Of a DNA stretch of 64,000 nt, positions 23,615 through 44,423 are shown piece after piece. This DNA comes from a virus: positions 1 through 64,000 of the IMG/VR virus record IMGVR_UViG_3300043395_002349. One strand, given 5' to 3'. Position 1 is the stretch's first letter. Each line of letters starts with the position of its first letter. A program made the translations under genes and the position numbers. The notes beneath the pieces were generated by a model. That model ran no database searches, was not told where the DNA came from, and saw only the letters and a list, made by a program, of their open reading frames with translations.

Positions 23615-24740
23615 CTATAATTTTTTCAATAAAAGTATTATTTTTAACATACTCATCAAATATTTTTATATTTTCGTTTGCCATTTCATACAATTCAGTT
23701 TTTATTAATTCATATTCTTCAGTTTTTGCTTTAGCTATATAATCAATAATTTGCAATTCGTTTTTTCCTTCAAATCTTTTTAAATTTTTATAATTTAAAA
23801 ATCCAAATTTTTCCATAAAATCATCTGTAATTTTACACATTGCAATAAAAGGTTTTCCGATTGCTAACATATCATATGTTTTTTCGGTCACTAAATTTTT
23901 TTGCATATCGCCATTATCACCATTATCTGTTTCCATTAGGATTGAAATATCACTTTTGATTGTAGTATTTACAAATTTTCTAAAATTAATTTTATAATCT
24001 AAACCACCATTTCCTTGATAAAAATCATCTATTATATATTCATTTGGTAAATTAATAATAAATCCCAAATCTTCTTTGTACATGTCTTTCATTCTTTCAT
24101 ATTGTCCAAATAATTCAGGATTATATTTGTTTAATGTTTCATTTTCCTTTATATTTTTTATATGAAAACTATTTACAGAATAGAATAGATTTTTATATCT
24201 TTTATAAAAATATCTTAAATATTTAATTCTATTTGGCTTGAATGGTAGATAAACTGAAAAATCTAATCTATACTCTTTTTTATTTAATTGTTTAAATGTA
24301 TCTCTTAAATAATAGTGTGTATTCCAATCTCTATGATAAATAAAACGATTTAGTATCAATCCTAAATCAAATATACAATCCTCTTCATCAGTAATTTCAG
24401 ATACTAAATATTTTACATTTGGGTAATCTTTTGATGCTTTTTTAGGTAAATGATGGTCTAAGTTTATTGGGCATAATTCATAAAACATTTTATCAGGATT
24501 TGCTTTAATAATACTTTCCATTTCAGGATAACTTGCACAATCCCACATAAAATTTACATCATAAACAAAATCAGGTTCAAATCGTATATCATGTTTATCA
24601 ATTAAATTGTAATATGCTAATTCCCAATTGTAATCATTCATAAAATACTCATCAAATCTGGTGTTTTTAAACATAAAATAAAACTCACTTGCTCTTGAAA
24701 GTGGAGTCATTGTACCTCTAAAAAAAATTCCTATTTCCAT
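23601..24740 (-). CDS. Putative glycosyltransferase, GT-B-like paralogue 5
   Basis: 379 residues. The C-terminal signature NLVTEKTYDMLAIGKPFIAM and DFMEKFGFLNYKN follows the cassette's GT-B-like pattern, with TEK and KPFI conserved. ILMETDNGDNGDMQ lies just ahead, at the position where the paralogues have the ETSFY-type segment. The N-terminal half has LYNLIDKHDIRFEPDF-like diverged sequence without a motif I can name. TAATG overlap with rmlC upstream suggests coupled translation. The residues needed for catalysis cannot be assigned by eye. Confidence 0.7.
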   Translation of the reverse strand: MEIGIFFRGTMTPLSRASEFYFMFKNTRFDEYFMNDYNWELAYYNLIDKHDIRFEPDFVYDVNFMWDCASYPEMESIIKANPDKMFYELCPINLDHHLPKKASKDYPNVKYLVSEITDEEDCIFDLGLILNRFIYHRDWNTHYYLRDTFKQLNKKEYRLDFSVYLPFKPNRIKYLRYFYKRYKNLFYSVNSFHIKNIKENETLNKYNPELFGQYERMKDMYKEDLGFIINLPNEYIIDDFYQGNGGLDYKINFRKFVNTTIKSDISILMETDNGDNGDMQKNLVTEKTYDMLAIGKPFIAMCKITDDFMEKFGFLNYKNLKRFEGKNELQIIDYIAKAKTEEYELIKTELYEMANENIKIFDEYVKNNTFIEKIIDDIK

Positions 24741-25288
24741 TATCTATCTCTTTTTTGTAATATTGGATTTGTAGTTGGCCATTCCATTTGATATTCCGGG
24801 TCGTTCCATTTTACTACACCTTGTTCATCTGCATCTACATAACCATCTTTGTAGAATAAGTTATAGTGAAACATACAATCAGTTAATGCATAGTGTCCAT
24901 TTGCAAACCCAGGTGGAACTAACACCTGATTTCTTAATCTTTCTGTTATAATAAAACTTTCCCACTCACCATATGTTTTAGATTGAGGTCTCATATCTAA
25001 TACAACTAAATATATATCACCCACTGCTGCTTGTACTAATTTCCACGTTTTATTATCCCAATGTAATCCTCTTAATACACCTTTATAGGAACGAGAAAAT
25101 CTCCCATGAATAGAAAGTTCTTCTTTATTGTAATGTATTTGATTCATTACCGGATGTTCTTCGGAGTGATATGTTGTAAATATTTCCCCTCTATATTCTC
25201 TAAATACCGATGGTTGATACATCGGAACTTCATAACCAAATTTCTTTGATGGAGTAATTTGGAACTCATCCCATTTATTGCTCATCAT
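24740..25288 (-). CDS. rmlC: dTDP-4-dehydrorhamnose 3,5-epimerase family protein
   Basis: 182 residues, the usual RmlC length, single cupin. GVLRGLHW (70-77) carries the catalytic His (H76). LVQAAVGDIYLVVLDMR, SKTYGEW, LVPPGFANGHYAL and VKWNDPEYQMEWP follow the family order. RmlC epimerises C3 and C5 of a dTDP-4-keto-6-deoxyhexose; related enzymes act at one carbon only. It implies that the phage or host supplies a 4-keto-6-deoxy sugar nucleotide. I see RmlC here, while RmlA, RmlB and RmlD were not specifically recognised, although the four epimerase-like proteins could include RmlB or RmlD roles. The start at 25288 or 25285 (two adjacent ATGs) overlaps the upstream radical SAM gene. Confidence 0.92.
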   Translation of the reverse strand: MMSNKWDEFQITPSKKFGYEVPMYQPSVFREYRGEIFTTYHSEEHPVMNQIHYNKEELSIHGRFSRSYKGVLRGLHWDNKTWKLVQAAVGDIYLVVLDMRPQSKTYGEWESFIITERLRNQVLVPPGFANGHYALTDCMFHYNLFYKDGYVDADEQGVVKWNDPEYQMEWPTTNPILQKRDR

Positions 25289-26825
25289 TTAAATGTTTTA
25301 TAATTTCATTTTCTAAATCATCTGTTATAATTCCTTCTTCCAATGCTCTTTTTTCATAATCTTTTTTGTAAAGATTGTTTTCATCACCTCTTACTTTTCT
25401 AATTTCTTGAGTATAATCTACTTTTGTTGCTCTTACTCTTTCCCACCAATCTTCTAATTCAGGAAAAGTTTCTAAAAAGTTTTTACCTCTACGAACATCA
25501 TATTGTTGATAGAAGGATTTAAAATCTCGTTGTCTATGTCTAACATCGGATGAAAATCTATGACCTGTTGTAACTTCTCTTAGATATTCACATAATCTAT
25601 ATATTTGATTTACTAACCCCCATAAATCCGTATCATTGTAATATGAAGGTTTACTCTTAATAAAGTTTTCAACCCAATTTTGAAGGTGTTCTGCCCTTTC
25701 TAAACGTATTTCTTCAGGTAGTGTAGATACTGATTGGAAAGATGGAAAGCGTAAAATATTAAGTGTCATTAATAAAGGTGTTTTATTAATATACTTTTCT
25801 CTTAATAAATTCATTTCATCTAAAAACTCTGTAATACTAAATAAACATAATGCATTTATTGTCATCATTACATTCATTGTTCTTACGTTACCATCTCTTA
25901 AAATCTTTTCTACATTACTTATCCATCTATCCCAATTTTTTCCATCTCTGATATATTCTGCATGCTTTCCTACACTTTCACCACTTGTATAAATGTCTAT
26001 TTCTTTAAAGTTATGGGTTGCTTTAATTAATCTATCAACTAATTCTTGTTTTTGTCCTAAATTTGAATTAACTGCAAATCTTACATCACATTCTTTATTT
26101 TTTTCCCACCAATCCATTAACTTCCAAAAGTCTTTACTCATAGTAGGTTCACCACCCGTAACTCTTAATTCTCGTAATGAATGTTGTAAATCACCTTCCC
26201 ACCATTTCCAAAATGCCTCAACGTATGGATTACCCTCATTATATTTTCCATATAACATTGCATCATCGCCTGCGTGATGGAATGCAGGTGCTCCATCGGT
26301 TGTTAAATTTTGGTATGCACCATTTGTTTTGATATCGGTTTGCCATGTTGTACTAAAAGATGCATTGCAATATGAACAAGCAAAATTACAATTAGCATCA
26401 AAACTTATTTCTAATGTTTTTAAATCTACATCTTTTGTATATCCAAATTTTTCCTTTGCTTCTTTTAATTCATCATCTGAATAAATTACTGATTTATAAA
26501 CTCTATCACTAACTTTATCTACTCCTAAATCCTCTACTCGCCAACAATATTCACATTCGGCAGGTCTAATTCCTTCCAACATTTCTTTTCTCACTAATTT
26601 TTTATAATGAGTATTATGAAGCGCCTTATATGATTTTTGTAATTCTTCTAATGGTATTTTGTGTGCAGGTGGATGATGACATGAAGTAGTTTGTCCCATA
26701 TTTAACCATATAGTAGCATTGTACCACTTTGCACCACAGAATGATGGAGATATAGAATTTATTGCTCTATCTCTATATTCTTGATATGATTCATCGCCTT
26801 TTTTACCCCAAACAAATTTAGCCAT
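25275..26825 (-). CDS. Radical SAM protein, twitch-type, paralogue A
   Basis: 516 residues. The radical SAM cluster motif is DANCNFACSYC (C146, C150, C153, spacing Cx3Cx2C), followed by ELRVTGGEPTMSKDFWKLMD, the GGE motif that binds SAM. A Cys pair CEYCW (91-94) near the N-terminus, with SFCGAKWYNATIWLNMG before it, marks the twitch-domain family often seen in phage and bacterial glycan clusters. The substrate is unknown; relatives are suspected to modify sugars or peptides. It is paralogous along its whole length to the 28482 protein. Iron-sulfur assembly would depend on the host. Confidence 0.9.
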   Translation of the reverse strand: MAKFVWGKKGDESYQEYRDRAINSISPSFCGAKWYNATIWLNMGQTTSCHHPPAHKIPLEELQKSYKALHNTHYKKLVRKEMLEGIRPAECEYCWRVEDLGVDKVSDRVYKSVIYSDDELKEAKEKFGYTKDVDLKTLEISFDANCNFACSYCNASFSTTWQTDIKTNGAYQNLTTDGAPAFHHAGDDAMLYGKYNEGNPYVEAFWKWWEGDLQHSLRELRVTGGEPTMSKDFWKLMDWWEKNKECDVRFAVNSNLGQKQELVDRLIKATHNFKEIDIYTSGESVGKHAEYIRDGKNWDRWISNVEKILRDGNVRTMNVMMTINALCLFSITEFLDEMNLLREKYINKTPLLMTLNILRFPSFQSVSTLPEEIRLERAEHLQNWVENFIKSKPSYYNDTDLWGLVNQIYRLCEYLREVTTGHRFSSDVRHRQRDFKSFYQQYDVRRGKNFLETFPELEDWWERVRATKVDYTQEIRKVRGDENNLYKKDYEKRALEEGIITDDLENEIIKHLNDEQ

Positions 26826-26826
26826 A

Positions 26827-27795
26827 TTAAAAGTTTTGTGCGTATCCTAATGGAAAACCGTTTCTAAATTCAGATGTCATTTTTGGAATTAATATCTGGT
26901 ACCCCCTAATCAATTCTTCTATACCCATATCCAGTGTATATTCTGGTTTCCAACCGGTGTTTTCTATTTTTTTGTTTGAAACAATATAATCTCTTTTATC
27001 CGGGTCTTCATAAAAATCTGAGTATGTAATTGCAAAATCAGGAATATGTTGTTGTATTTTTTCTAACAATTCCTGCTTACTTAAATTTGCATTACTTAAT
27101 CCTACATTATAAACATTGTGTTTCATTTTTTCATAATTATTTAATGCCCAAACGAATACGTTTCCAACATCTTGTATATGAATAAAATTACGTTTAAAAT
27201 GTCTTTCAAAGACAGTAATGTATTTATCGGTTAATGCTTTATAAACAAATTCATTAACTAATAAATCTGTTCTCATTCTTGGTGAAACACCAAATACAGT
27301 TGCTAACCGAAAACAAACCGCTGATGAACTTTCTAATAACAATTTTTCCGCTGCTACTTTACTTTCACCATAAACTGAAATTGGATTTAGTGGTGATGTT
27401 TCCGTACATTCTGTTTGTCCTTCACCGATACCATATCCACTATTTGTATTAGGATAAAGTATAATATGATGTTCATCTATTACATCTAATATTGTCTTTA
27501 TTTGCTCAAAGTTAACTTCCCATGCTAATTGTGGGTCTGCTTTACAAGCAGGAAAACCTACAATTGCTGCTAATGGAATAATTACATCATTATCTGCAAC
27601 TAATTTTTGTAATAAATTTTTGTTTCTAACATCACCAAAAATAAATTTGTAATTTATATTGGATACTAATTGTAAGGGTGATAGTTGTTTAAAACTTAAA
27701 TTATCTAAAACGGTAATTTTATGTCCTTGTTCTAACATTTTTTTAGAAATAACCGATCCTAAATAACCTGCCCCACCTGTAATTAAAATATTCAT
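26827..27795 (-). CDS. NAD-dependent nucleotide-sugar epimerase/dehydratase (canonical)
   Basis: 322 residues, extended SDR. TGGAGYLG (6-13) binds NAD(P). PISVYGESKVAAEK supplies the catalytic Tyr142 and Lys146. FGDVRNKN and IPLAAIVGFPACK are typical of UDP-glucose 4-epimerase-like proteins, and the Cys in GFPACKADP is characteristic of one subfamily seen in O-antigen clusters. The likely role is C4 epimerisation or reduction of a nucleotide sugar. Unlike the 15110 and 17954 proteins, its catalytic residues are intact. It lies one base downstream of the radical SAM gene and one base upstream of the LamG gene. Confidence 0.92.
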   Translation of the reverse strand: MNILITGGAGYLGSVISKKMLEQGHKITVLDNLSFKQLSPLQLVSNINYKFIFGDVRNKNLLQKLVADNDVIIPLAAIVGFPACKADPQLAWEVNFEQIKTILDVIDEHHIILYPNTNSGYGIGEGQTECTETSPLNPISVYGESKVAAEKLLLESSSAVCFRLATVFGVSPRMRTDLLVNEFVYKALTDKYITVFERHFKRNFIHIQDVGNVFVWALNNYEKMKHNVYNVGLSNANLSKQELLEKIQQHIPDFAITYSDFYEDPDKRDYIVSNKKIENTGWKPEYTLDMGIEELIRGYQILIPKMTSEFRNGFPLGYAQNF

Positions 27796-28482
27796 TTATA
27801 TTAAAGTTTGTGTTAATGTTGTAGATGCTTTTAATGGGTTTCCTGAAATCATAATATTTAATCTTTCCTGTAATTTTACATTTCCGTATTCTTCAACATA
27901 GGCGTGATTTCCATTACCACTTTTATCTAATACTTTAAATCTGTTTACGTTTGTAAAATCAATATCACATACTATGCCAAATTTATCAACTATTTCAAAT
28001 TTACTAATAACTCCGTTTAAATAATTTTTATTTTGAACAAACGGATTTGAAGTACCTATCCATAATGGAACATTATTATAATCACTTACTATTCCTTCAA
28101 AATTAATTTCTTTAATTTTATCGTTTACTATCGCTCTGAAAATATTCTTTTCCGTATCTATTTGATAGATTATTGAAAAATCAACATCATATTCAAAATC
28201 AAAACTATGTGTTATCGTTTCATCTGAAAAATTGTTTGTATTTTTATTAACCGATAATTCAAATTTGATTGTGTTATTTTCTATATAAACACCACTATCT
28301 ACAATACCTTGTTTTGCAAAAATATATTGTTTTTTTCCATTATTTTTTGCATTAAAAATACAATTAATTGTCAAATCGTTTTGAAACAATCCTTTTAATA
28401 AATTAGGTCTTATTGATGTGTTATACTTTGTTTCTTTAAATAAAGAACAACAAAACGTATCTTTAAATTCAAATAGTTCCAT
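27796..28482 (-). CDS. Stand-alone LamG/concanavalin A-like lectin domain protein
   Basis: 228 residues, predicted all-beta. It ends with FTNVNRFKVLDKSGNGNHAY, matching the D-x-S/T-G-N-x-N-H segment of the LamG insertions in the neighbouring GT7 proteins (LTDNGNHGEIYD, LSGNKNNGLIYN). WIGTSNPFVQNKNYLNGVISKFEIVD in the middle (without quoting further) resembles their YIGTTTS...FKGDIAKIMMWD part. No catalytic residues are seen, so glycan or protein binding is the best guess. It forms TAATG with radical SAM paralogue B. It could be an acceptor-binding partner for a cassette enzyme or a virion lectin. Confidence 0.72.
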   Translation of the reverse strand: MELFEFKDTFCCSLFKETKYNTSIRPNLLKGLFQNDLTINCIFNAKNNGKKQYIFAKQGIVDSGVYIENNTIKFELSVNKNTNNFSDETITHSFDFEYDVDFSIIYQIDTEKNIFRAIVNDKIKEINFEGIVSDYNNVPLWIGTSNPFVQNKNYLNGVISKFEIVDKFGIVCDIDFTNVNRFKVLDKSGNGNHAYVEEYGNVKLQERLNIMISGNPLKASTTLTQTLI

Positions 28483-29873
28483 TATTTCATTTCTTTACAT
28501 TTGTTATAAAAATCGGCTAATTCAGGGAATGTTTTTTCAAAATTGGTTCCCCTTCTTCTATCATGCTCACTAAAGAAATTATAAAAATCTTTTCTATGTG
28601 TTAATCTATCTTCATCTGCGATTGATGTAAAGTAATCATAAATTCTTCTTACTTTTACAATTTCTACATCACTAAACCCATAACAATTTACATCTTCTCT
28701 TAACATTTCATAAAATTCAACCAATTGTGCTTGTTTCCAAATTTCGTCTGCCCATTCCTTATCTAAAATTTTGATAGATTGATGATTTGGATATCGAAGA
28801 TATGAACTATCTAACAATAATGGCTGCCTATAATATCTTAATGCGTTTGTGTGTTTTGCTTTTAATGAATACACATCTGTAATTAATTTACGATATGATG
28901 GTACTGATAATGCATTATATGTACTCATTATATCAATTGTTAATCTTGGTATATATTCACATAAATCATCAATTCTATCCATTAATTGATTATATACTAA
29001 ACCATTCCTTTGATATTCGGCCTGTGCACCATATCCATCACAACTTGTATATAAAATCAATTCTTTCACTAATCCCTTTTCAGAAATTATTTTAAACTTT
29101 TCTTTAAATTTATTATATAATGCATCGGGTACTCCTAAATTTGAATTTATACTCAATGATAATTCTTTATTAGGATTATCAGTTTCAATGATATAATCTA
29201 AAATTTTCATTGTATCTCTATGCATCATTGGTTCGCCACCGGTAACTCTAAATGTATACAAATCATTATATAATTCAGGCCACCATTTCCAAAATGCCTC
29301 AACGTATGGGTTGTATTCATTTTGTGGAATTGGTATTCTACCACTACCAACAAAATGTTCCAATCCATTAAAATTATCGGATGTTGGATATCCCCCATGT
29401 TGTTCAATTTCTTCCATCCATTTTGTTGAGAATGGTGGTGCACAATATGAACATTTAAAGTTACACGCGTTTGAGAATGCAACTTCAACGTAAGATGGAT
29501 TTATATTATCTCTCCAATCTGAATTTTTTATTTTTTCTATTTGTGGATATGCCCATGGTTCAGAAGATTTAAATGTTCTATCGCTAAATTGATTTGAACT
29601 ATCTTCTACACCCCAACAATAATCACATTCTGTCGGGCGTTGACCTTCTAACATTTCTCTACGCTTTTGTTTCTTAAAACGTGTATTATGCAGTGCGGAT
29701 GGATTTCTTTGAATTTCTGTTGTAGAAATTTGATGTGTCATCGGATGGTGACAACTATGATTATGTCCTATATGTAGATGTAATGTAACCTGCATCCATT
29801 TTGCCAAACAGAATCCTGGTCCTATTTCATTTAACTCTGCTCTTACTTTTTCAAATTTTTCGTAACTTGCCAT
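28482..29873 (-). CDS. Radical SAM protein, twitch-type, paralogue B
   Basis: 463 residues. SNACNFKCSYC gives the 4Fe-4S ligands C137, C141, C144; YTFRVTGGEPMMHRDTMK gives the SAM-binding GGE. The N-terminal CDYCWGVED (83-91) pairs with CEYCWRVED in paralogue A, and both proteins share ADRRRG/DVRRGKNF-type C-terminal segments ahead of the last 20 residues. The two genes are separated by an epimerase and a LamG gene, so a duplication followed by insertion or shuffling is likely. Probable role: radical chemistry on a sugar or peptide during glycan synthesis, not assignable further. Confidence 0.9.
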   Translation of the reverse strand: MASYEKFEKVRAELNEIGPGFCLAKWMQVTLHLHIGHNHSCHHPMTHQISTTEIQRNPSALHNTRFKKQKRREMLEGQRPTECDYCWGVEDSSNQFSDRTFKSSEPWAYPQIEKIKNSDWRDNINPSYVEVAFSNACNFKCSYCAPPFSTKWMEEIEQHGGYPTSDNFNGLEHFVGSGRIPIPQNEYNPYVEAFWKWWPELYNDLYTFRVTGGEPMMHRDTMKILDYIIETDNPNKELSLSINSNLGVPDALYNKFKEKFKIISEKGLVKELILYTSCDGYGAQAEYQRNGLVYNQLMDRIDDLCEYIPRLTIDIMSTYNALSVPSYRKLITDVYSLKAKHTNALRYYRQPLLLDSSYLRYPNHQSIKILDKEWADEIWKQAQLVEFYEMLREDVNCYGFSDVEIVKVRRIYDYFTSIADEDRLTHRKDFYNFFSEHDRRRGTNFEKTFPELADFYNKCKEMK

Positions 29874-31318
29874 TATGCTTTACAATTTATTATTACTGAA
29901 TTATTACCAATATCATCTACTGATAATAATTCATATTTTAAATTATTCATTCCGTCTTCTTTCCAATCATATTTTCCTTGCTGCATTTCTAACACATATC
30001 TTCTTTCATTTCTTGCAGTTGTTTCACCTTTTGCCCATTTATCAACACCACCTACACTTATTAATCCTTCGGTTTGATGTGGTAAACATTCAAACTTACC
30101 ATCTCTACGGAAAGGTAAGATAGTATGATGAATTTTTAAAATATCTTCTTCTTTTATTTCAACATCATAGATTTCGCCGTGATTTCCATTATCGGTTAAA
30201 TCTTCTAGTATATTTCCATTTGTATTATTAAAATCATAATGTGCCACCATATCTTCTGGGAACTCCATTATTTCATTTTCTTCTAAACATCTGTCCCACA
30301 TCATAATTTTTGCAATATCCCCTTTAAACCACCTATTAACCTCATCTATCCCTACTGATGTTGTCGTTCCTATATAATAAGGTTCTGTACCATATCTTTT
30401 TAATAATCCATTATATTCCATTGGTGATGTAACGCCTGTTCCGAATCGTGCATCACTCTTTCTACCATTAATATAAAGTGATATCTGTTTGCTATCATCA
30501 TCAACCGTTAATGTTACCCATGTCCATTGTTGTTCATATCTTTTAGCCCATAGGTATAAAAATTCTCTTTCATTGTTCCATAACATTGTAGTAAATGCTC
30601 TACTATTATTATAAGATATACCCCAATCATGTCCGGGTCTGCGAAATACAGGATATTCACAAAATCTTCTATCTTCATCACCGATTAAATAGATAGGCAC
30701 TTTTTCTTCTTGTTGATGTGCTTTAACTAAAATAGAAACTGAATGTGAACGTGAACATATATTGCGAATAGTTCTTGTTGGTTCTATTTTTACATATGAA
30801 TTACGTCCATTAAAATATCCGTATTTTTGATTTTTAATTATTGGTAAATAATGTTGTTCTGCATTATCAGTTAATACACATCTCCAAAATAAATCATCAT
30901 CTTCCATACCCCAATCCCAATAATCATTTGAGTAACCATTTGTAGCTTCTACTTGTTCTTTTGTAAATAGTACTGCACCTCCAAAATATTCCTCATATTT
31001 AAGGTTATAATCCGTTTGTGATATTCTTACTGCCAAATGCTTTGGGTTCTCAGGATTGTAACTATAATCACAAGAATCATCTTCGGGTACCATATCAATA
31101 TCATGCCAAACTATATAATCACATCCATCATCAAATGCGTGTTTTGCGGCTATGTTTTTCATCTTACCTCGATTGAACAATTTATCATCACATTGATGTG
31201 CAAAATAAATCTTATGTTCAATACCTCTTTCTTCTAAGAATTTATGAACTCTAGGCGAAAACTCTTTTAAATGAGCTTCTCTATTTCTATATGGTACACA
31301 AACACCTAACTTATGCAT
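29873..31318 (-). CDS. GT7 (beta-1,4-galactosyltransferase-like) enzyme with nested LamG domain, copy 1
   Basis: 481 residues. The first 150 are a GT-A glycosyltransferase of family 7: CVPYRNREAHL, DKLFNRGKMKNIA, HDIDMVP with the metal-binding DxD (D73, D75), YFGGAVLF and NGYSNDYWDWGMEDDDL, the acceptor/catalytic loop. Residues about 160-390 are a LamG-like lectin domain ending LTDNGNHGEIYD. After it, LPFRRDGKFECLPHQ and DGMNNLKYELL resume the C-terminal strands usually found directly after EDDD in GT7. The lectin is therefore inserted inside the transferase, not appended. It probably transfers Gal, GalNAc or a similar sugar; donor not provable. TAATG overlaps on both sides. Confidence 0.88.
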   Translation of the reverse strand: MHKLGVCVPYRNREAHLKEFSPRVHKFLEERGIEHKIYFAHQCDDKLFNRGKMKNIAAKHAFDDGCDYIVWHDIDMVPEDDSCDYSYNPENPKHLAVRISQTDYNLKYEEYFGGAVLFTKEQVEATNGYSNDYWDWGMEDDDLFWRCVLTDNAEQHYLPIIKNQKYGYFNGRNSYVKIEPTRTIRNICSRSHSVSILVKAHQQEEKVPIYLIGDEDRRFCEYPVFRRPGHDWGISYNNSRAFTTMLWNNEREFLYLWAKRYEQQWTWVTLTVDDDSKQISLYINGRKSDARFGTGVTSPMEYNGLLKRYGTEPYYIGTTTSVGIDEVNRWFKGDIAKIMMWDRCLEENEIMEFPEDMVAHYDFNNTNGNILEDLTDNGNHGEIYDVEIKEEDILKIHHTILPFRRDGKFECLPHQTEGLISVGGVDKWAKGETTARNERRYVLEMQQGKYDWKEDGMNNLKYELLSVDDIGNNSVIINCKA

Positions 31319-32736
31319 TATAAATTAACTTTTATTTTTATTGCGTTATTTGTTATATCTTCTCGTTCTACTTCTTTATACACACAGGTATTTAATCCAT
31401 CTATACTCAAATCTACAACATTTCCCTTCATTTCATTATAAAATCTTTCCTGATTTTTTCTAGTTTCAGAATGTACCCAATTATTTCCTATTGTAGAATT
31501 GGAAGTATGTTTTAATGTTTTAAATTTACCTTCTCTACGAATTGGTACAATTATATCTGTCTGAAATTTATCTAACATTACATCATCTTCACAGTTATAA
31601 ATCAATCCATTATTTTTATTTCCACTTAAATCTTGTAATATATCACCTTTAAAATTTTTAAAATCATAATAACATTTTAAAAACTTTGATTTGTTATATT
31701 TTTTAAAATCATTTACAATAGATTTATACAAAGAATTTTCATAAATATCTTTTATATTATTTTCATCTAATGCAATATTCCAAATAGCGAACTCTGCTAT
31801 TAATCCTTTAAAATAAAATTGATTAGTATCTAATGTAGGATTACCAGCACCTAAATACAAATAATCCACATCATATGGAAATATTTGCTCAGTTATTTCT
31901 TTTTTATCTACTAATTCACCATTCATATAAAAACAAAATTCATCATCTGTTTTTGTTATTACTAAATGTGACCAAATTTCATTTAATATTTCGGTTTGAA
32001 TTGATATAGATTTATCATCTTTTGTCCACATTTCACCTTTATATCTTTTGAATGATGTATATGATATACCTGTATTTCTACCTGGTATTGATACAATTTG
32101 ATATTCATCAAAGTCAGTATTAAGTGAAGTTTTACAATCTTCTGGTTTTATTTTTATTGAAATTGTAAAGTCATTATTAAAGATTGATGTTAAATTTTTG
32201 TATGGAACTTTTACATAAGAACTTTTTCCATCAAATTTAAAATAATTAATTAAATAATTTTTATCTTCAATACCAAATGAAATTTTATCTAATGGAATAT
32301 TTCTCTGAATGCATCTATAAAGTAAATCGTCATCTTCAAATCCCCAACCCCAATACTCATTGGAATATCCATTAACAAGTTTGTAATCATGCACATTAAA
32401 CAAAGTAACTCCACCAAAATAATCCATAAATGGAATATCTTTGTTTATTTTAGAAACTAAATGAATAGGTGTTTCTGAATATGAATAATCCACTCCTTTT
32501 AAGGGTAACATATCCACATCATGTAATGCAAAATAATCAAACCCCTCTTTAATAGCAATTCTAGCACCTACATTTAGAAGTTTACCTCTATTAAAAGGTT
32601 TATTATCATTTTGTTCAATGACAAAGATTTTGTAATCGTAATCCTTTAAATATTCTTGCATATAAGGAACGAAAACTTCTAAATGAGATTGTCTGTCTCT
32701 ATAAGGAACTATTATTGCTAATTTCTTATTCTTCAT
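31318..32736 (-). CDS. GT7-like glycosyltransferase with nested LamG domain, copy 2
   Basis: 472 residues from ATG 32734-32736. I prefer this start because the product then begins MKNKKLAIIVPYRDR, like copy 3; an in-frame ATG five codons upstream (32751) exists. GT7 motifs: PFNRGKLLNVG, LHDVDMLP (D73, D75), YFGGVTLF and NEYWGWGFEDDDL, intact. A LamG-like domain spans about 155-385 and ends LSGNKNNGLIYN. VPIRREGKFKTLKH and DGLNTCVYKEV complete the transferase fold. It is expected to act in the cytoplasm on a nucleotide sugar, with the lectin perhaps holding the acceptor glycan or glycoprotein. Middle of a tandem array with copies 1 and 3. Confidence 0.88.
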   Translation of the reverse strand: MKNKKLAIIVPYRDRQSHLEVFVPYMQEYLKDYDYKIFVIEQNDNKPFNRGKLLNVGARIAIKEGFDYFALHDVDMLPLKGVDYSYSETPIHLVSKINKDIPFMDYFGGVTLFNVHDYKLVNGYSNEYWGWGFEDDDLLYRCIQRNIPLDKISFGIEDKNYLINYFKFDGKSSYVKVPYKNLTSIFNNDFTISIKIKPEDCKTSLNTDFDEYQIVSIPGRNTGISYTSFKRYKGEMWTKDDKSISIQTEILNEIWSHLVITKTDDEFCFYMNGELVDKKEITEQIFPYDVDYLYLGAGNPTLDTNQFYFKGLIAEFAIWNIALDENNIKDIYENSLYKSIVNDFKKYNKSKFLKCYYDFKNFKGDILQDLSGNKNNGLIYNCEDDVMLDKFQTDIIVPIRREGKFKTLKHTSNSTIGNNWVHSETRKNQERFYNEMKGNVVDLSIDGLNTCVYKEVEREDITNNAIKIKVNL

Positions 32737-32959
32737 TAAAATCTCTTTCAATTCCCTTGTCAGGTCTTGTAGAAGAACCTACACTTTTAGTTTTAGCTAT
32801 GTTATAAAATTCATTCAAATACCATTCTAATCTTGTAGACCATCCTGCGGTATCTAAATCGTATAACCAATCACTAATGTCTTGCATAGAGTGTGCAATA
32901 CTTTCTAAAGCCTTTACACCTCTTTCTTCTGTTGATAATTCTGTTTTTTTGTCTGCCAT
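32726..32959 (-). CDS. Small acidic helical protein, unknown
   Basis: 77 residues, no cysteines, predicted mostly helical (VKALESIAHSMQDISDWLYD). No motif recognised. It lies between two GT7-LamG genes and overlaps the start of copy 2 by 11 bases. Its conservation of overlaps and sensible composition support translation. It may be an accessory or structural component; nothing more can be said. Confidence 0.6.
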   Translation of the reverse strand: MADKKTELSTEERGVKALESIAHSMQDISDWLYDLDTAGWSTRLEWYLNEFYNIAKTKSVGSSTRPDKGIERDFNEE

Positions 32960-32969
32960 ATTATTTGTT

Positions 32970-33275
32970 TTAATAATTTAATAATTTATTTATAACTTCA
33001 TCAAATACTATTTTTTCATGTCCTTCTACCCAAACCTTATCTTTTATTTGTTTTAATTTTTCTCTTTCTACAACAAATTTTTCATATTGTAACACATATT
33101 CAAACGTATTAGAACCATTCGGATGATATATTTTCATTAAACCTTCCATACATAAAATAAATTTAGGTAAGAAAAATTTAAAATCTCCTTTTCCTTCTTT
33201 TAATGTTTGAAACTCTTCTGCAATTTGCTCTAATTTTTTTACAAAAGTTTCATTATTTAATAAATCTTTTATCAT
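32970..33275 (-). CDS. Small hypothetical protein, 101 aa
   Basis: From the ATG at 33273-33275, which overlaps the stop of GT7 copy 3 as ATGA; an upstream in-frame ATG at 33293 is the alternative and would add six residues. The product is charged and helical (TFVKKLEQIAEEFQTLKEG, EREKLKQIKDKVWVEG), without transmembrane or catalytic motifs. It sits with the 77-aa gene between GT7 copies 2 and 3, suggesting that these two small genes travelled or were inserted together within the GT7 array. No family recognised. Confidence 0.62.
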   Translation of the reverse strand: MIKDLLNNETFVKKLEQIAEEFQTLKEGKGDFKFFLPKFILCMEGLMKIYHPNGSNTFEYVLQYEKFVVEREKLKQIKDKVWVEGHEKIVFDEVINKLLNY

Positions 33276-34753
33276 AAAATAATTTTTAACCATTCAGTTT
33301 TTTTATCAAAACTTTCTTGTTTTACTAATTTAAATTTAATATTACTTAATCCTATTTTATTTGTAGGAATTTTCTTTGTTAATATATCATTAAAAAATAT
33401 ATCACCATTTTCTAAAATGTCAGGATCATATGATTTATATCTTTCTACTATATCCGTATCGTTTTCATGTGGTAATGATTGGAAATTGGCTTCTATTCTT
33501 TTTGGTAATTTTATTTTAGAAGTTTTTAATATTTCATCTTCTTTTAAATAAGCTGAATAATTACTACCAAAGTTATTATAAACCGTTGCGTGATTATGAT
33601 TTTTTGTTTCATCTATTATAAAATTTTTATAAAACTTTGTAAAACTATATTTTACAACTGGTTCGAATTGTGTTTGTAATTTTCTATTAAATACTAATCC
33701 ATTTAAATACAAATTTTTGATTTCAGAATCACTTAATACATAATCAAAAAAATATAAATTTGCTAACTTTCCTCTAAATAAATTTTTGTTGTGTGAACCT
33801 GCTCCTAAATAAATTTTATCTTTTGTGTAATCCCATAATGGTAATTCAAAGTCAGTAAGAGTATCTTGTTTTTTACCTTCTTCAAATGTATCTACTATCA
33901 ATCGTAGTTTATTAGAATCAAAATCCATTATACATACAATGTGATGCCATTGATTTGGTGCTAATTTTCTATAATTAAAATAATATTTTTTATCTTTACC
34001 CCAAAAATTAAATCTTAATGTATTATCTGGTTGAATAGAAATTCCACTATTAAATCCTGGAAATGAAATAACATATTGTTCATCTTTAACAAATTCATCA
34101 AAATTAATCCAGGCTGAAATTGTAAATGAATCCGCGGTAATTCCTTTTAAAAATTTATTTGGTATAATTTCAACTTGTGTTTCACCATCAAAATTTAAAT
34201 ATGTTATCTTTTCTTTTTTTATAGAATCAGTAATTCTTAATCTATCTATTTCGTAATTATTATCTATTCGTGGATAAACATATTCGGAATCTAATTTAAT
34301 ACCGTTTTGTTCCATTCTAAATAATAAATCTAAATCCGTATATCCCCAACCATAATATTCATTTGAGTATCCATTTATTGATTGAAAATCTTCTTTAGAA
34401 ATAATAAAAACACCACCTGTGTATTGTAAATATGGTAAGGTATTTTCGTGAACTTGTACTCTTGTTGCTAAATGTGTTGGTATTTTTTTATACGAATAAT
34501 CTGCTTTATCTGATGTTGGTAACATATCTACATCGTGAAAACAGAAATAATCATACTCATCTTTTAATAAATGAAATGCAGAGTTACAAAGTTTTCCATA
34601 ATTAAATGGTTTATCATCGCTTTGTTCAATTACAAATATTTTATAATCAAAATTTTTATCTTTTAGAAACGATTGTATGTGTGGCAAGAAAATATCAAGA
34701 TGTTCTCTCCTATCTCTATACGGAACAATAATTGCTAATTTATGTTTATCCAT
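33272..34753 (-). CDS. GT7-like glycosyltransferase with nested LamG domain, copy 3, altered acidic loop
   Basis: 493 residues. Same architecture as the two copies downstream: GT7 N-part (IIVPYRDRREHL, KPFNYGKLCN, FHDVDMLPT with D74 and D76, YTGGVFII), LamG-like insertion at about 175-410, then KLPKRIEANFQSLPH and IGLSNIKFKLV. The acceptor loop differs: YYGWGYTDLDLLFR instead of WGWGxEDDDL, so the Glu and the second Asp are replaced by Thr and Leu while the first and third acidic positions remain. FNRGK is also FNYGK. This suggests a changed acceptor or donor preference rather than loss of function, but that needs modelling. It precedes a 35-base gap, one of the longest in the cassette. Confidence 0.86.
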   Translation of the reverse strand: MDKHKLAIIVPYRDRREHLDIFLPHIQSFLKDKNFDYKIFVIEQSDDKPFNYGKLCNSAFHLLKDEYDYFCFHDVDMLPTSDKADYSYKKIPTHLATRVQVHENTLPYLQYTGGVFIISKEDFQSINGYSNEYYGWGYTDLDLLFRMEQNGIKLDSEYVYPRIDNNYEIDRLRITDSIKKEKITYLNFDGETQVEIIPNKFLKGITADSFTISAWINFDEFVKDEQYVISFPGFNSGISIQPDNTLRFNFWGKDKKYYFNYRKLAPNQWHHIVCIMDFDSNKLRLIVDTFEEGKKQDTLTDFELPLWDYTKDKIYLGAGSHNKNLFRGKLANLYFFDYVLSDSEIKNLYLNGLVFNRKLQTQFEPVVKYSFTKFYKNFIIDETKNHNHATVYNNFGSNYSAYLKEDEILKTSKIKLPKRIEANFQSLPHENDTDIVERYKSYDPDILENGDIFFNDILTKKIPTNKIGLSNIKFKLVKQESFDKKTEWLKIIL

Positions 34754-34788: not shown

Positions 34789-35628
34789 TTAAATTGATTG
34801 AATCTTTTTGAAAAGTTTATCCCAGTGTGAATATCCCCATATTCCACAATTTTCAATCATAAACCTCTCATCATATATATCAATTTTAAAATTATTTGAT
34901 TTTATAGCATCATACATTTTCTGATATTCATTAGAATAAGAATGTTCTTTTTTAATATCCGCAACTGCTTTAATTCTTTCTACACAAGTACTATCCCACT
35001 TAAAATGATTAACTATAACATTGTATCTATCGGTAGGTGCAATTAATGGATGATTCCAACCTTGCCATTTCCAAGTTGTTTGCCCGTCTATTTTTGCGTA
35101 ATGTTGACCAGGTGTAAGTTCTACATATCCCTTCATTATACAAACTTTATTAGGGCATGCACCCGAAAGTGGATATCTAAAAAATCCTGCTAATGGAAAT
35201 TGTTTAAATATGTCTTCGTTTTCTTTTATCTCTACAAATTCACCATCTATACCAATTCTATCTACAAAACCACCTCTAACTAATTCCCATCCATTTATTT
35301 CACATTCTTCTATTATAGAATCTATATCCTTTGAATATTCATGAAATTCATCATCATCTGCTACAATCCACCAATCATTAGGATGTAATAATTTAGTTTG
35401 ATTGTATAAATGAGTAACATGTTCCCAATTAAATTTTTCTTTTTTAGAACGTTTGATTATTTGTACATTTGGAAAATTTGATGCAATTTTTTTAACTTCA
35501 TCATATGTACTCATGTCATCCCATTCGTACACAACCACATAAATCTCATCTACTAAATTTTCATAATAAGAAAAAAAATGGTTAAGAGTATTTGTTCTAC
35601 TTCCTGTAACTGTAACTAATCTTGTCAT
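34789..35628 (-). CDS. GT2/GT92-like glycosyltransferase
   Basis: 279 residues. The N-terminus LVTVTGSRTNTLNHFFSYYE and EIYVVVYEWDD form a Rossmann-like GT-A start. DWWIVADDDEFHEY (about 95-108) contains the DxD that binds the metal-nucleotide sugar. Later HYAKIDGQTTWKWQGWNHP and VNHFKWDS have the His residues often seen in GT92-like enzymes. No membrane segment. ATGA overlap with the epimerase gene upstream. Likely a soluble transferase adding one sugar in the cassette's glycan. Linkage unknown. Confidence 0.82.
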   Translation of the reverse strand: MTRLVTVTGSRTNTLNHFFSYYENLVDEIYVVVYEWDDMSTYDEVKKIASNFPNVQIIKRSKKEKFNWEHVTHLYNQTKLLHPNDWWIVADDDEFHEYSKDIDSIIEECEINGWELVRGGFVDRIGIDGEFVEIKENEDIFKQFPLAGFFRYPLSGACPNKVCIMKGYVELTPGQHYAKIDGQTTWKWQGWNHPLIAPTDRYNVIVNHFKWDSTCVERIKAVADIKKEHSYSNEYQKMYDAIKSNNFKIDIYDERFMIENCGIWGYSHWDKLFKKIQSI

Positions 35629-36467
35629 AAACTATTTATATATTCTTTTAATTTATCTTTGGGGTGCCAATTTAATTTTTCTACATCATTATTTAATCGT
35701 TTTCCGTTTTTATAATTTCCTAAAACAGATGCTGCATATCTAACTTTTAACTTTCCAAATTTCTCTTCAAACATTTTAAAAATTTGTATAATACTATATG
35801 ATTTTGTATTTCCCATTTCCCAACCTGAAAGGTTTTTCTTCTTAGTTGTTAAAAGTATTTCTAAACCATCAACTACATCATCTATATGTGTAAATGCTCT
35901 ATGAGGCATTCCTAATTGATGTATTGTTATATGTTTTTTATTTTTAATTTGGTTTCTCCATTTGCCAATCAACGCTGCCATATGTGATTCTACTAATTCA
36001 CCTGGTCCGTAAACGTTATATAATCTTACAATTGTAATATCCATTTTTAATCCATCTCTATAAAATCTACATAATTCTTCACCCATTCTTTTTGATGTTG
36101 AATATGGTGATATAGAGTGATGAATTGATGATGAACTACTGAAAATAACTTTACAATTATTTCTAAGTGCATAATCTAATACTTCTTTAGTACCCGTTAC
36201 ATTTACTGAATATGTAATGTTTTGATTTTTGTATGAAGGTAAGACTCTACTATATGCTGCTAAATGATAGATACAATCATAATGTTTATTTGGTATATTT
36301 CCCATTGCTCTAATATCACCACCTAAAAAGTTAGCACCTTCTACTATTTCTGCTTCTTTTCCAATATAAAGATTATCTATAATATCAACTTCATACCCTT
36401 TATCTAAAAATCGTTTGGTTAACGCTTTGCCAATAAAACCACAACCACCTGTAATTAGTATTTTCAT
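35625..36467 (-). CDS. NAD-dependent nucleotide-sugar epimerase/dehydratase (canonical)
   Basis: 280 residues, complete extended SDR. TGGCGFIG (6-13) binds NAD(P); SSSSIHHSISPYSTSKRMGE supplies Ser, Tyr122 and Lys126 of the catalytic set; VRLYNVYGPGE and TKSYSIIQIFKMFEEKFG are typical of UDP-glucose 4-epimerase and dTDP-glucose dehydratase relatives. It is a little shorter than average. ATGA overlaps at both ends place it in a tight GT2-epimerase-methyltransferase-GT4 group (34789-38229). Substrate unknown; C4 epimerase is the commonest role for this look. Confidence 0.92.
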   Translation of the reverse strand: MKILITGGCGFIGKALTKRFLDKGYEVDIIDNLYIGKEAEIVEGANFLGGDIRAMGNIPNKHYDCIYHLAAYSRVLPSYKNQNITYSVNVTGTKEVLDYALRNNCKVIFSSSSSIHHSISPYSTSKRMGEELCRFYRDGLKMDITIVRLYNVYGPGELVESHMAALIGKWRNQIKNKKHITIHQLGMPHRAFTHIDDVVDGLEILLTTKKKNLSGWEMGNTKSYSIIQIFKMFEEKFGKLKVRYAASVLGNYKNGKRLNNDVEKLNWHPKDKLKEYINSL

Positions 36468-37219
36468 TTTCTTCTTACTAAAGTTAATCCTGTTGATGCC
36501 GGTTTATTTTTTATGATACCAAAATTGAATAGGTCAAACACTTGCCATTTTTCAGTATCTATTTCTTTTGCTAATTGAATCGGCCCATTCCAATCATCGA
36601 AATCACCTCTGTCTTTAACCTCATTTGTGACTATGTATTTATCTGCGTAATTAGGGTCAGTATCATGAATTGAAATAATACCATTTTCATTTACTAATTG
36701 AGAATATAATTCAAAATCTTCTTTTACGTTTTCGTAACTATGACCGGCATCAATATGTAAATAATCAATCTTAATATCATTTAATACAAAGAAATTATGA
36801 AATGCATTTGCAGTTGTGTCATTTATAATTCTAGGTGAAAATAATCTTCTAAAGAAACTTTCTTCTTTAAACCAATTTACATTACCACCTATACCATTCA
36901 TCGCATCTACAACATAAGTTGTTCCAATATCACCCCAACTTTTATCATTGTTTCCTTCAAAAATATTTTGAGAATGTAAATCCATTCTAGCCTGTGTCAT
37001 TATTCTAGGTATAAATCCACCACCGCTTCCTAAACATACACATACCTTTGCTCTCATATACTGAATTAGTGAATATACGATTAACCCATCTCCGAGATGG
37101 TCATCTGTTGCACCATGTGACCAACGATATGGGACATCTTTTAAAACTTCTTCACCAACTTCATTAAATTCTTGGTTATTTGTAATAAATTCTTTAACGT
37201 AACTTTTATTAATTATCAT
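36464..37219 (-). CDS. Class I SAM-dependent methyltransferase (Methyltransf_24-like)
   Basis: 251 residues. KVCVCLGSGGGFIPRIMTQA is the glycine-rich SAM-binding loop. IDYLHIDAGHSYENVKEDF and GIISIHDTDPNYADKY follow the pattern of the Methyltransf_24/cephalosporin hydroxylase-like group, in which the acidic and His residues also bind a metal. Such enzymes O-methylate sugars or small molecules. Terminal sugar O-methylation is a common capping step in surface glycans, so that is the favoured role here, by inference. ATGA overlaps with both neighbours. Confidence 0.85.
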   Translation of the reverse strand: MIINKSYVKEFITNNQEFNEVGEEVLKDVPYRWSHGATDDHLGDGLIVYSLIQYMRAKVCVCLGSGGGFIPRIMTQARMDLHSQNIFEGNNDKSWGDIGTTYVVDAMNGIGGNVNWFKEESFFRRLFSPRIINDTTANAFHNFFVLNDIKIDYLHIDAGHSYENVKEDFELYSQLVNENGIISIHDTDPNYADKYIVTNEVKDRGDFDDWNGPIQLAKEIDTEKWQVFDLFNFGIIKNKPASTGLTLVRRK

Positions 37220-38508: not shown

Positions 38509-41500
38509 TTATTTTAATTTATTCTCTAATAATTCTACTTTTTTTGTTAATTCCTGAACTGCTTTCCACAAAATTGATGTTACTTTTTCATAATCAATAC
38601 CCGAAACTTTTTCTTCTTCATAAATTGCTTTACCATTTTTATCTGCTTCATATGTTACGGCTTGCCAAAAACCGTTATTATGTAAATCTTCTGCAATTAA
38701 ACCAAATGTTTCAACTTCATCATCTGCCCATTTTTTATATTTAAATCTTTCAACAGGAACTTTTTGTATAATTTCTAATACATTTTCGTTTTCTTTCCAA
38801 TTTCCAAAAATATTTTTTGTTTTACGCGATGATGAACTTGAAAATACATATCCATTACTTCTTACAATTTTAAGAGTATCATTTGTACCTGGATTAGATG
38901 GATTTAAAACTACACTAGTTAAATAAAGTTGATTATGTATATTGGTACTTCCACCCGTTCCTAATCCTGGTCCTGCAAAATAGTGAGAACCTGCTGCAAT
39001 TGTTGCAAATCCCTGGTTTAAATCGGATGTATTTTCAATATACATTCCACCATTTGTATATATACTAGACAATGAATTAGTAGTTCCGGTACTATTATTC
39101 ATAGCAATATAAATCGGCGATGATGCATTTGTTCCTGCTACTTCTGAATAAAATTTAATACCCACACCTATTCCTGTACTTCCAGAATAACCATCCATTT
39201 GGCTATAAACCACTTGACTTGTTGGTGCTACACCGGCTGTTAATCTAATACCACCTGGTACTATTTCAGTAAAGGAATTTAATTGTGGTGTACCAATAAA
39301 TCCAGTTCCTGCTGGCCATTCCATTGTAGGATGTGTATTACCAATTCTAACTCTATAATAATTTGTATTACTAGAATCCATCACTGCAAATTCTTTGTTT
39401 GTACTATCTAATCTAGTAATATTATCAGTTGATTTCAATTTATCAGTAGCAATATCCCAACCACCAATAGAACCAAGAGTTGCAGTTACAGTACCATTAA
39501 TACTTAGTGTAGAACCATCCCAACTTAATTTATCTTTTAATGAAAATTGGCCACTTCCATCTAAATATACGGATGTATCTGTGTTATTATAATTTCCCGC
39601 TCCAACATAAATTCTTCTTGTTGCTGTTGTTGCATCTAAAACAATTGAGTTTGTATTACCAACCGTTACTTTTCCACTAAAATAACCTAAATTACCTGCT
39701 ATGATTGGTGATGCAATGGTTGTACTACTTATAAACGTTCCACCACTATATGTTCCAGCGGCAATTGAATCTGCTACTGCTTTTGCATTTGTATATGCAG
39801 CACTTGCCATTGTCCACGCACTTCCACTTGCTGAACTTATTGCATTTGATTGTGCACTATTTGCTGAAGTGGTTGCCATCGTATATGCACTTCCACTTGC
39901 TGAACTTATTGCATTTGATTCTGCACTATTTGCAGCATTTGTTGCAACAGTATATACACTCGCTGATGTTGCAGCATTACCGCCTGCTACTGTTATATTT
40001 CCATTAATGCTTAATGTAGTTCCATCCCATGTAAGTTTATCTTTTAATGAAAATTGGCCAGCACCATCCATATAAACAGCTGTATTGGTATTATTATATG
40101 TACCTGTTCCCACATATATTCTTCTAGTTGCGGTTGTAGCATCTAATACAATTGGGTTTGCTCCACTACCTACCGTCACTTTACCACTAAAGTATCCTAA
40201 ATTACCTGCTATAATTGGTGATATTACACTACTTCCGTTTATAAATGTTCCATTACTTGAACCAGATGCAATTGAATCCGCTACTGCTTTTGCATTTGTA
40301 TATGCAGAACTTGCTTGCAAATAAGCACTTGCAGATGCATTTGTATATGCTGCTCCCGCTTGGGTATAAGCACTTGCAGATGCATTTGTATATGCTGTAT
40401 TTGCTGATGTAGTTGCAACACTATAAACACTTGCCGATGTTGCTGCTGTTCCACCCGTTACATTTATTGTTCCATTGATTGTAAGATTTGAACCATCCCA
40501 TAATAATGCATTCCCACCTGCACTTCCTGTCAAATAAAATATACCCGATGAACTTAAGAATGATGACCATTTTCCACCATCATAGTAACCTAAATTTTTA
40601 CTTCCTAAATATAAACCTGCACCGGATGGTGTTGCTGTTTTATTTATTAAACCGACAGTATCATTGAATATTCTACTATCTAAATTATTTGTAGTCGTAT
40701 ATATTGATGATGAGTATGCAGATGCTGATGTGTATGATCCCCATGCCGATGCTGATATAGTATTAACCGATGATGTTGTTGCTGCGTTTCCACCAACAAT
40801 ATTAATTGCACCTGCAATAGTTAAAACATTATTTTGCCATGTAAGATAATTAGAACCAGTTCCACTTAAATAGAAATTACCGGTATTATCCATATATGTT
40901 TTCCAACTACTACCACTATAAAATCCTAAATTTGTACTACCTAAATATAAACCATTCGATGTACCTACTAATACGTTTGGTGGTCTTACTATATTTCCAC
41001 TAACATCTGTAAATATATTTGGTGTTATCGAAGCACTTAAGGATGATGTTCCACTATTAACACTTGCAGTTACTCCCGCTTTTGTTGCAGCGTTTGTAAT
41101 CCCACCTTCTTGTATATTAATTTGTCCTTGAACTTGTAGTGTTCCTAATTGACCTGCCCATGCTAAAAATTGCCCATTTGAACCCGTTAAATAAAAATCA
41201 CCCTGGTTATCCATATAGGTTTTCCAACCACTTGTAGATGAAGTTGCACTTGAACTATAAAATCCTAAATAAGTTGAACCTAAAAATAAACCGTTTCCAC
41301 TGGCAGTTGGTGGTTGATTTAATTTACCATTTTGATCGGTAAAAATAAATGTATCTAAAAATTGCGATGCAGAATAAACATTATACAATGAATTTGATTG
41401 TGCCGTATAAATCGAACTACTTAAATTAGATAAAGATGTACTTACAGATGAACTTAAATTATATACACTTCCACTTACTACATTTATAGATGAACTTAAT

Positions 41501-44414: not shown

Positions 44415-44423
44415 AATAAATAT
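44415..44423 (-). promoter_or_regulatory. ATATTTATT start-proximal element (one mismatch)
   Basis: Plus strand AATAAATAT begins 4 bases upstream of the ATG ending at 44411, in the 11-base gap behind the SbcD-SbcC stop. Same spacing and mismatch as the element at 9568. Confidence 0.33.

What the first reader, a model, noticed from the sequence alone, without database searches (positions are those of the whole stretch)
29873..34753. Lectin domain nested inside a GT7 galactosyltransferase, in three tandem copies
Each protein has the GT7 N-part up to the acceptor loop (WGxEDDD or variant), then about 230 residues of LamG-like sequence, then the segment R-x-GKF/ANF-x-x-LxH and DGL/DGM/IGL-x-x-x-x-Y/F that normally follows the loop directly. 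The lectin thus interrupts the catalytic domain at the acceptor-binding side. A built-in carbohydrate-binding domain there could dictate acceptor choice. I do not know of a described enzyme with this nesting.
Basis: partly seen in the sequence, partly recalled or inferred. Interest (0 to 1): 0.85.

Follow-up and report, generated by a model that had tools for sequence, protein, structure and literature searches.

The report
Sugar-transferase with nested lectin domain
Large uncultured viruses of aquatic bacteria carry two or three sister galactose-transferring enzymes in which a whole lectin-like domain is spliced into the catalytic domain at a segment that helps choose the acceptor; the anatomy is firmly established, what the lectin binds is not known.

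Summary
Three adjacent minus-strand genes (29873-34753) encode GT7 (beta-1,4-galactosyltransferase-type) GT-A enzymes with a ~230-residue LamG jelly roll inside the catalytic domain. AlphaFold models of two (pLDDT 93, pTM 0.87-0.88) align 214-217 residues, from both flanks of the insert, with B4GALT1 (Z 27-28); the insert matches LamG/pentraxin folds (best Z 21-22). A profile of only the post-insert segment finds insert-free bacterial GT7s directly after their N-part, so the nesting is real. Viral relatives are either insert-free (linker 0-11 residues) or LamG-bearing (200-340), with nothing between. The insert precedes the metal-binding histidine, in GT-A hypervariable region 3, part of the acceptor site. 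The three copies are old paralogues, not recent duplicates. Two keep the key catalytic residues; the third (33272-34753) belongs to a clade with an eroded active site. All sit in a conserved phage sugar cassette with radical-SAM genes and a free-standing LamG protein. None matches any of 50,697 phage records, but two Fibrobacterota MAGs carry a copy, one clearly in a bacterial context. A lectin dictating acceptor choice is the most likely mechanism, untested; docking is the main rival.

The parts
29873..31318 (-). GT7-LamG paralogue C (P0001, 481 aa), key catalytic residues present
30869..31318 (-). GT7 N-part of paralogue C (DxD = HDIDM, acceptor loop WDWGMEDDD)
30137..30835 (-). nested LamG domain of paralogue C
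29876..30136 (-). GT7 C-terminal segment of paralogue C (RRDGKFECLPH, DGM)
31318..32751 (-). GT7-LamG paralogue B (P0002, 477 aa; TTG start, ATG at 32736 possible); modelled
32281..32727 (-). GT7 N-part of paralogue B (HDVDM, WGWGFEDDD)
31564..32265 (-). nested LamG domain of paralogue B
31318..31563 (-). GT7 C-terminal segment of paralogue B (RREGKFKTLKH with C-His; NQERF; DGL)
33272..34753 (-). GT7-LamG paralogue A (P0003, 493 aa), substituted active site (FNYGK, GWGYTDLD, IGL); modelled
34274..34753 (-). GT7 N-part of paralogue A
33518..34222 (-). nested LamG domain of paralogue A
33272..33517 (-). GT7 C-terminal segment of paralogue A
28482..29873 (-). twitch-domain radical SAM protein, next gene, homologue in 79 of 80 related loci
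27796..28482 (-). free-standing LamG protein related to the nested LamG (P0004); a counterpart stands at this place in 77 of 80 related loci
34789..35628 (-). GT2-like glycosyltransferase of the cassette (homologue in 76 of 80 loci); Pfam match weak
36464..37219 (-). methyltransferase (Methyltransf_24) of the cassette (homologue in 74 of 80 loci)
26827..27795 (-). NAD-dependent sugar epimerase/dehydratase of the cassette (homologue in 57 of 80 loci)
24740..25288 (-). RmlC-like dTDP-sugar epimerase of the cassette (homologue in 49 of 80 loci)

Best explanation
The proteins are inverting, metal-dependent GT7 glycosyltransferases (most likely UDP-Gal-dependent) in which a LamG/ConA-like domain was inserted, most simply once, into the segment between the xED helix and the metal-binding histidine (GT-A hypervariable region 3), before two gene duplications. 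The GT7 segments on both sides of the insert fold together into one catalytic domain (modelled). Inferred: the LamG domain is a built-in carbohydrate-binding module that holds the growing glycan or glycosylated acceptor over the active site and so sets acceptor choice, as terminal lectin domains do in GALNTs and MGAT4A. Paralogues B and C are active enzymes; paralogue A is a diverged partner with altered or lost catalysis that keeps its LamG. They act in a phage-encoded cassette (nucleotide-sugar enzymes, GT2, methyltransferase, radical SAM, free LamG protein) that makes or modifies a glycan on the infected cell or on the virion. Shown: predicted fold, nesting, paralogy, catalytic motifs, cassette. 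Not shown: donor, acceptor, ligand of the LamG, biological target.
For: Pfam and phmmer (B4GALT1, E 7.6e-30); two confident models with both GT halves on B4GALT1 and the insert on LamG folds; CT-only profile finds insert-free GT7s; spacing either 200-340 or 0-11 residues; one origin not rejected (AU p 0.54); GT and LamG trees give the same three clades of 19, 21 and 24 rows; DxD, W314, E317, D318 and C-His positions invariant in 45 of 45 B and C proteins; the residue aligned with donor-selecting Tyr289 is Tyr in 43 of these 45; LamG evolves ~2.1 times faster than the N-part in all three clades, as a specificity module might; cassette conserved. The insertion point lies in HV3, which contributes acceptor contacts in B4GALT1 (PMC7185993, PMC7948508).
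Against: LamG folds often bind proteins or act as spacers (PAPP-A and pentraxins are among the best fold matches); no sugar-binding residues could be identified; fast LamG evolution also fits relaxed constraint (the C-terminal GT segment is 1.8 times faster too); the distance from LamG to the acceptor groove was not measured; no enzyme of this architecture has been assayed.
Confidence: 0.52

Rival explanations
1. The nested LamG is a protein-protein docking or oligomerisation module: it tethers the enzyme to a protein acceptor (a tail fibre or the free-standing LamG protein) or to the other paralogues and the radical SAM enzyme, and is not a lectin.
For: A free-standing LamG relative stands two genes downstream in 77 of 80 loci; two or three LamG-bearing paralogues and a radical SAM gene are kept together; in one contig paralogue C and the radical SAM protein form a single 914-aa ORF; the fold matches include protein-binding PAPP-A and oligomeric pentraxins; a gene with an S74 chaperone-like end, probably a tail fibre, lies nearby (38509-42972, weak match).
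Against: Insertion into a segment that contributes to the acceptor site is not needed for docking, and a terminal fusion would do; the best single fold match is annotated as a putative carbohydrate-binding protein (4dqa), though that label is untested. The 914-aa ORF may be an indel artefact.
Confidence: 0.28
2. The LamG is a conformational modulator that reshapes the acceptor pocket without binding glycan itself, like alpha-lactalbumin bound to B4GALT1 but covalent.
For: The insert is directly upstream of the C-His and of the segment carrying the N-acetyl pocket; alpha-lactalbumin acts on that pocket in B4GALT1 (PMC7565966).
Against: No spatial measurement was possible; insert-free relatives with the same motifs exist, so the insert is not required for the fold.
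Confidence: 0.12
3. The whole set are pseudoenzymes: LamG-bearing binding proteins on a dead GT scaffold.
For: Clade A shows W314-position changes in 14 of 19, loss of the D318 position in 6 of 19 and of C-His in 7 of 19.
Against: Clades B and C keep the five key catalytic positions in all 45 proteins.
Confidence: 0.04
4. Assembly or annotation artefact.
For: None found.
Against: 189 ORFs with the same architecture in 80 contigs, plus bacterial examples.
Confidence: 0.01

Closest known systems
GT7 beta-1,4-galactosyltransferases (B4GALT1, B4GALT7; Pfam PF13733 + PF02709)
   Same: GT-A fold over both flanks of the insert, DxD, GWGxEDDD loop, C-His, FNR motif and N-x-x-R-F segment (clades B, C)
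   Different: the B4GALT1 and B4GALT7 structures matched here have no folded domain between the xED helix and the C-His; the Met344 metal ligand is replaced by Leu/Ser/Thr/Cys in nearly all
Insert-free GT7 proteins of phages and bacteria (e.g. L159, L090, L092)
   Same: same catalytic segments; L090 is 54% identical to P0002-type N-parts
   Different: linker of 0-11 residues in place of the LamG
GALNT (GT27) with C-terminal ricin-type lectin; MGAT4A (GT54) with C-terminal CBM32-like lectin; POMGNT1 with N-terminal lectin domain
   Same: a GT-A enzyme carrying its own lectin domain; in the first two it governs activity or acceptor use (PMC9296478)
   Different: lectin is terminal and of another fold; here it is nested and LamG
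LamG / Laminin_G_3 domains (BACOVA_03559 4dqa, PAPP-A, pentraxins)
   Same: fold (Z 17-22)
   Different: 11-20% identity; inserted in an enzyme; ligand unknown
Glycosyltransferase-rich hypervariable islands of pelagimyophages (PMC7029224)
   Same: large aquatic myophages with glycosyltransferase and radical SAM genes near tail fibres; host-surface modification proposed
   Different: GT8 dominates there; laminin and lectin are not mentioned; this cassette is GT7-LamG based

Membership tests
GT7 glycosyltransferase | sequence match to GT7 N and C Pfam families above cut-off | tested here: met
   all three proteins
GT7 glycosyltransferase | complete GT-A catalytic domain including the segment after the acceptor loop | tested here: met
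   models of P0002 and P0003 align 217 and 214 residues with B4GALT1 through the C-terminus; P0001 by sequence only
GT7 glycosyltransferase | DxD, xED base and C-His | tested here: met
   45 of 45 proteins of clades B and C; in clade A (P0003's clade) partly lost, although P0003 itself keeps DxD, the D318 position and the His
GT7 glycosyltransferase | transfer of Gal (or GalNAc) from UDP-sugar with inversion | not testable with these tools
   needs an assay
LamG / ConA-like lectin domain | Laminin_G_3 sequence match and jelly-roll fold | tested here: met
LamG / ConA-like lectin domain | carbohydrate binding | not testable with these tools
   needs glycan array or binding assay
GT-A enzymes with terminal lectin (GALNT, MGAT4A type) | lectin domain outside the catalytic domain | tested here: not met
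   LamG lies between two parts of the catalytic domain

The most novel reading that the evidence does not exclude
A new way of programming glycosyltransferase specificity: a complete lectin domain inserted into the HV3 acceptor region of a GT-A enzyme, duplicated into paralogues with separately evolving lectins (one on an eroded catalytic site acting as partner), serving a phage glycan-building system unknown in any cultured phage.
Probability: 0.35. Interest if true: 0.8.

Novelty: new variant of a known kind. Interest (0 to 1): 0.62.

Why it matters
Acceptor specificity of GT-A enzymes is set by hypervariable loops; here evolution put a whole lectin fold into one of them and kept it in at least 189 viral sequences. 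Comparing LamG-bearing enzymes with natural insert-free relatives makes the role of an inserted lectin directly testable, and the enzymes could be starting points for glycan engineering. The cassette also points to an unstudied phage programme for making or changing surface glycans.

Tried and rejected
Searches of 50,697 deposited phage records with P0002, P0003, the radical SAM protein and an insert-free phage GT7 found nothing, so no annotated phage could be used for context. PHROGs gave only weak matches. Recent tandem duplication was rejected: the copies fall into three supported clades with orthologues in many phages. Lectin swapping between paralogues was rejected: the LamG tree has the same three clades. 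A single origin of the insert is neither shown nor rejected (2 changes on the tree, AU p 0.54). That the architecture is phage-only was considered and rejected: two of 167 genomes of one phylum hold it, one of them (L089) on a contig with ordinary bacterial genes; L084 and L086 carry the phage cassette order. I looked for other domains at the same site: none in 140 viral GT7 ORFs. No tRNA in the window. That no nested-lectin GT appears in the PDB fold lists is not evidence that none exists.

Full report
THE OBSERVATION. The three ORFs at 29873-31318, 31318-32751 and 33272-34753 (minus strand) each carry Pfam Glyco_transf_7N, the first ~60 of 78 positions of Glyco_transf_7C, and then Laminin_G_3, all above the curated cut-offs. 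phmmer finds B4GALT1 at E 7.6e-30, but only over residues 9-156 of P0002. In a joint alignment the other two are 36 and 31% identical to P0001. I call them A (33272-34753), B (31318-32751) and C (29873-31318).

IS THE LECTIN REALLY NESTED? Three tests say yes. First, an HMM built only from the segments after the LamG finds, in insert-free GT7 proteins of bacteria, the stretch that begins a few residues after the end of the N-part (e.g. GTN 20-177 then CT 181-246 in L093). The alignment shows R-x-G-x-F-x-x-L-x-H following the xED helix by about ten residues. Second, AlphaFold models from alignments of family members are confident: P0002 pLDDT 93.2, pTM 0.88; P0003 93.3, 0.87. VIA-align places 217 and 214 residues, spanning both flanks up to the C-terminus, on B4GALT1 (Z 27.0, rmsd 2.5; Z 28.2, rmsd 1.8), while the insert aligns with LamG and pentraxin folds (best Z 22.4 and 21.1). 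P0001 was not modelled. Third, in viral contigs the spacing between the two GT segments is either 0-11 residues (43 ORFs, no LamG) or 200-340 (93 ORFs, all LamG); nothing lies between.

WHERE IT SITS. In the P0002 model the xED helix (139-149) is followed by a strand (155-159), then the LamG from about 165 to 396, then strands 398-402 and 409-412 and the His aligned with B4GALT1 His347 (His415). In the GT-A scheme, hypervariable region 3 is the tail after strand beta-8 and holds the C-His (PMC7185993); HV2 and HV3 supply acceptor contacts in B4GALT1 (PMC7948508). So the insert opens HV3. That beta-8 equals strand 155-159 is my reading of the secondary-structure order. The distance to the acceptor groove was not measured because no coordinates are given out.

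CATALYTIC STATE. Bovine B4GALT1 binds Mn through Asp254, Met344 and His347, and holds the acceptor N-acetyl group with Arg359, Phe360, Ile363 (PMC7565966); the roles of Trp314, Glu317 and Asp318 are from general knowledge. In 21 B and 24 C proteins the DxD, W314, E317, D318 and H347 positions are invariant; M344 is replaced by L/S/T/C in nearly all. The position aligned with Tyr289 (Gal versus GalNAc donor, general knowledge) is Tyr in 43 of 45. Clade A differs: W314 position changed in 14 of 19, D319 position never Asp, D318 position lost in 6, C-His lost in 7, and the Asp of DGL replaced in all. P0003 itself keeps DxD, the D318 position and the His, but has FNYGK in place of FNRGK. A is therefore a diverged enzyme, and in one subclade probably a pseudoenzyme.

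HISTORY. A scan of IMG/VR gave 80 loci (493 relatives) with 189 full-length ORFs of the same order. A tree of the GT segments alone and one of the LamG alone both show the three clades A, B, C with the same 19, 21 and 24 members, so the insertion most simply preceded both duplications, and lectins were not swapped. In a careful tree with insert-free viral and bacterial GT7s the three clades have 100/99 or better support; one origin of the insert is not rejected (AU p 0.54) nor shown. LamG distances are a median 2.1 times those of the GT N-part in each clade, and those of the C-terminal segment 1.8 times.

SURROUNDINGS. The window is 64 kb of a 100,089-bp virus record whose terminase is nearest (53-55%) to Flavobacterium phage immuto and Microcystis phage Mel-JY01; immuto encodes T4-like gp20 and gp23. 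Around the three genes the same cassette recurs: C in 80 of 80 loci, radical SAM (NCBIfam N_Twi_rSAM) 79, B 79, GT2-like 76, methyltransferase 74, epimerase 57, RmlC-like 49, A 34. Between the radical SAM and epimerase genes stands a free LamG protein in 77 of 80 loci by position; 71 of 78 sequences match the nested-LamG profile at E below 1e-3 (hhalign probability 99.7). Six contigs of 198-287 kb hold two or three nested copies each, and four of them a detected free one.

DISTRIBUTION. No record of 50,697 phages matches P0002, P0003, the radical SAM protein or an insert-free phage GT7. In genome contigs several full-length hits look like phage contigs in MAGs: the same gene order, and several terminases in one MAG. 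L089 is different: its 66-kb contig carries cytochrome bd oxidase, Rnf-type and DsbD genes, and the GT7-LamG gene is followed by GT2, ABC exporter and HlyD-like genes. Only 2 of 167 genomes of that phylum have it (the other, L088, is titled Fibrobacter succinogenes, the link of L088 to that genome being inferred from the match). Of 395 genomes sampled from the phylum of a Flavobacteriales MAG, only that MAG matched.

MECHANISM. Best reading: active GT7 galactosyltransferases whose nested LamG binds the acceptor or product glycan and sets specificity. Terminal lectin domains do this in GALNT and MGAT4A (PMC9296478), but there they lie outside the catalytic domain. Main rival: LamG as docking module, given the free LamG protein and the tight gene linkage. 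A glycan target (host surface or virion) is inferred from the cassette; pelagimyophage islands with glycosyltransferases have been read as host-surface modification (PMC7029224).

NOVELTY. A new variant of a known kind: both domains are known; the nesting in HV3 and the paralogue set are, as far as I could search, undescribed. The search covered open-access papers only.

Noticed in passing
27796-28482: Free-standing LamG protein without Pfam match, related to the nested LamG domains; a fast-evolving counterpart stands at the same place in 77 of 80 loci.
   Followed up: yes
L073:4175-6919: Paralogue C and the radical SAM protein form one 914-aa ORF; the ~20 C-terminal residues of the GT are missing, so an indel or assembly error is as likely as a true fusion.
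   Followed up: partly
L089, L232, L233: Bacterial-context GT7-LamG gene, apparently in a Fibrobacterota MAG, next to GT2, ABC exporter and HlyD-like genes.
   Followed up: partly
32970-33293: 107-aa ORF between paralogues A and B, homologue in only 3 of 80 loci; other phages have different small ORFs (136-185 aa) near there.
   Followed up: no
25275-26825 and 28482-29873: Two twitch-domain radical SAM proteins (N_Twi_rSAM, E 6e-94 and 4e-96) of unknown role in a glycan cassette.
   Followed up: partly
21674-22309, 22306-22932, 13715-14260: Half-sized enzymes: a TPP-dependent E1-type domain, a short DegT-type aminotransferase, and a separate Transket_pyr domain 8 kb away, perhaps a split transketolase-like enzyme.
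   Followed up: no
16091-17468, 22919-23614, 42994-44411: Five 2OG-Fe(II) oxygenase genes.
   Followed up: no
44423-47569: One ORF with an N-terminal calcineurin-like phosphoesterase and a C-terminal SbcC-like ATPase: an apparent SbcD-SbcC fusion.
   Followed up: no
48609-50270: 553-aa DNA polymerase III alpha-like protein covering only catalytic and finger parts; 56% identical to a 484-kb uncultured phage.
   Followed up: no
4852-9564: 1570-aa protein with a cytidylyltransferase-like N-terminus and DUF5661.
   Followed up: no
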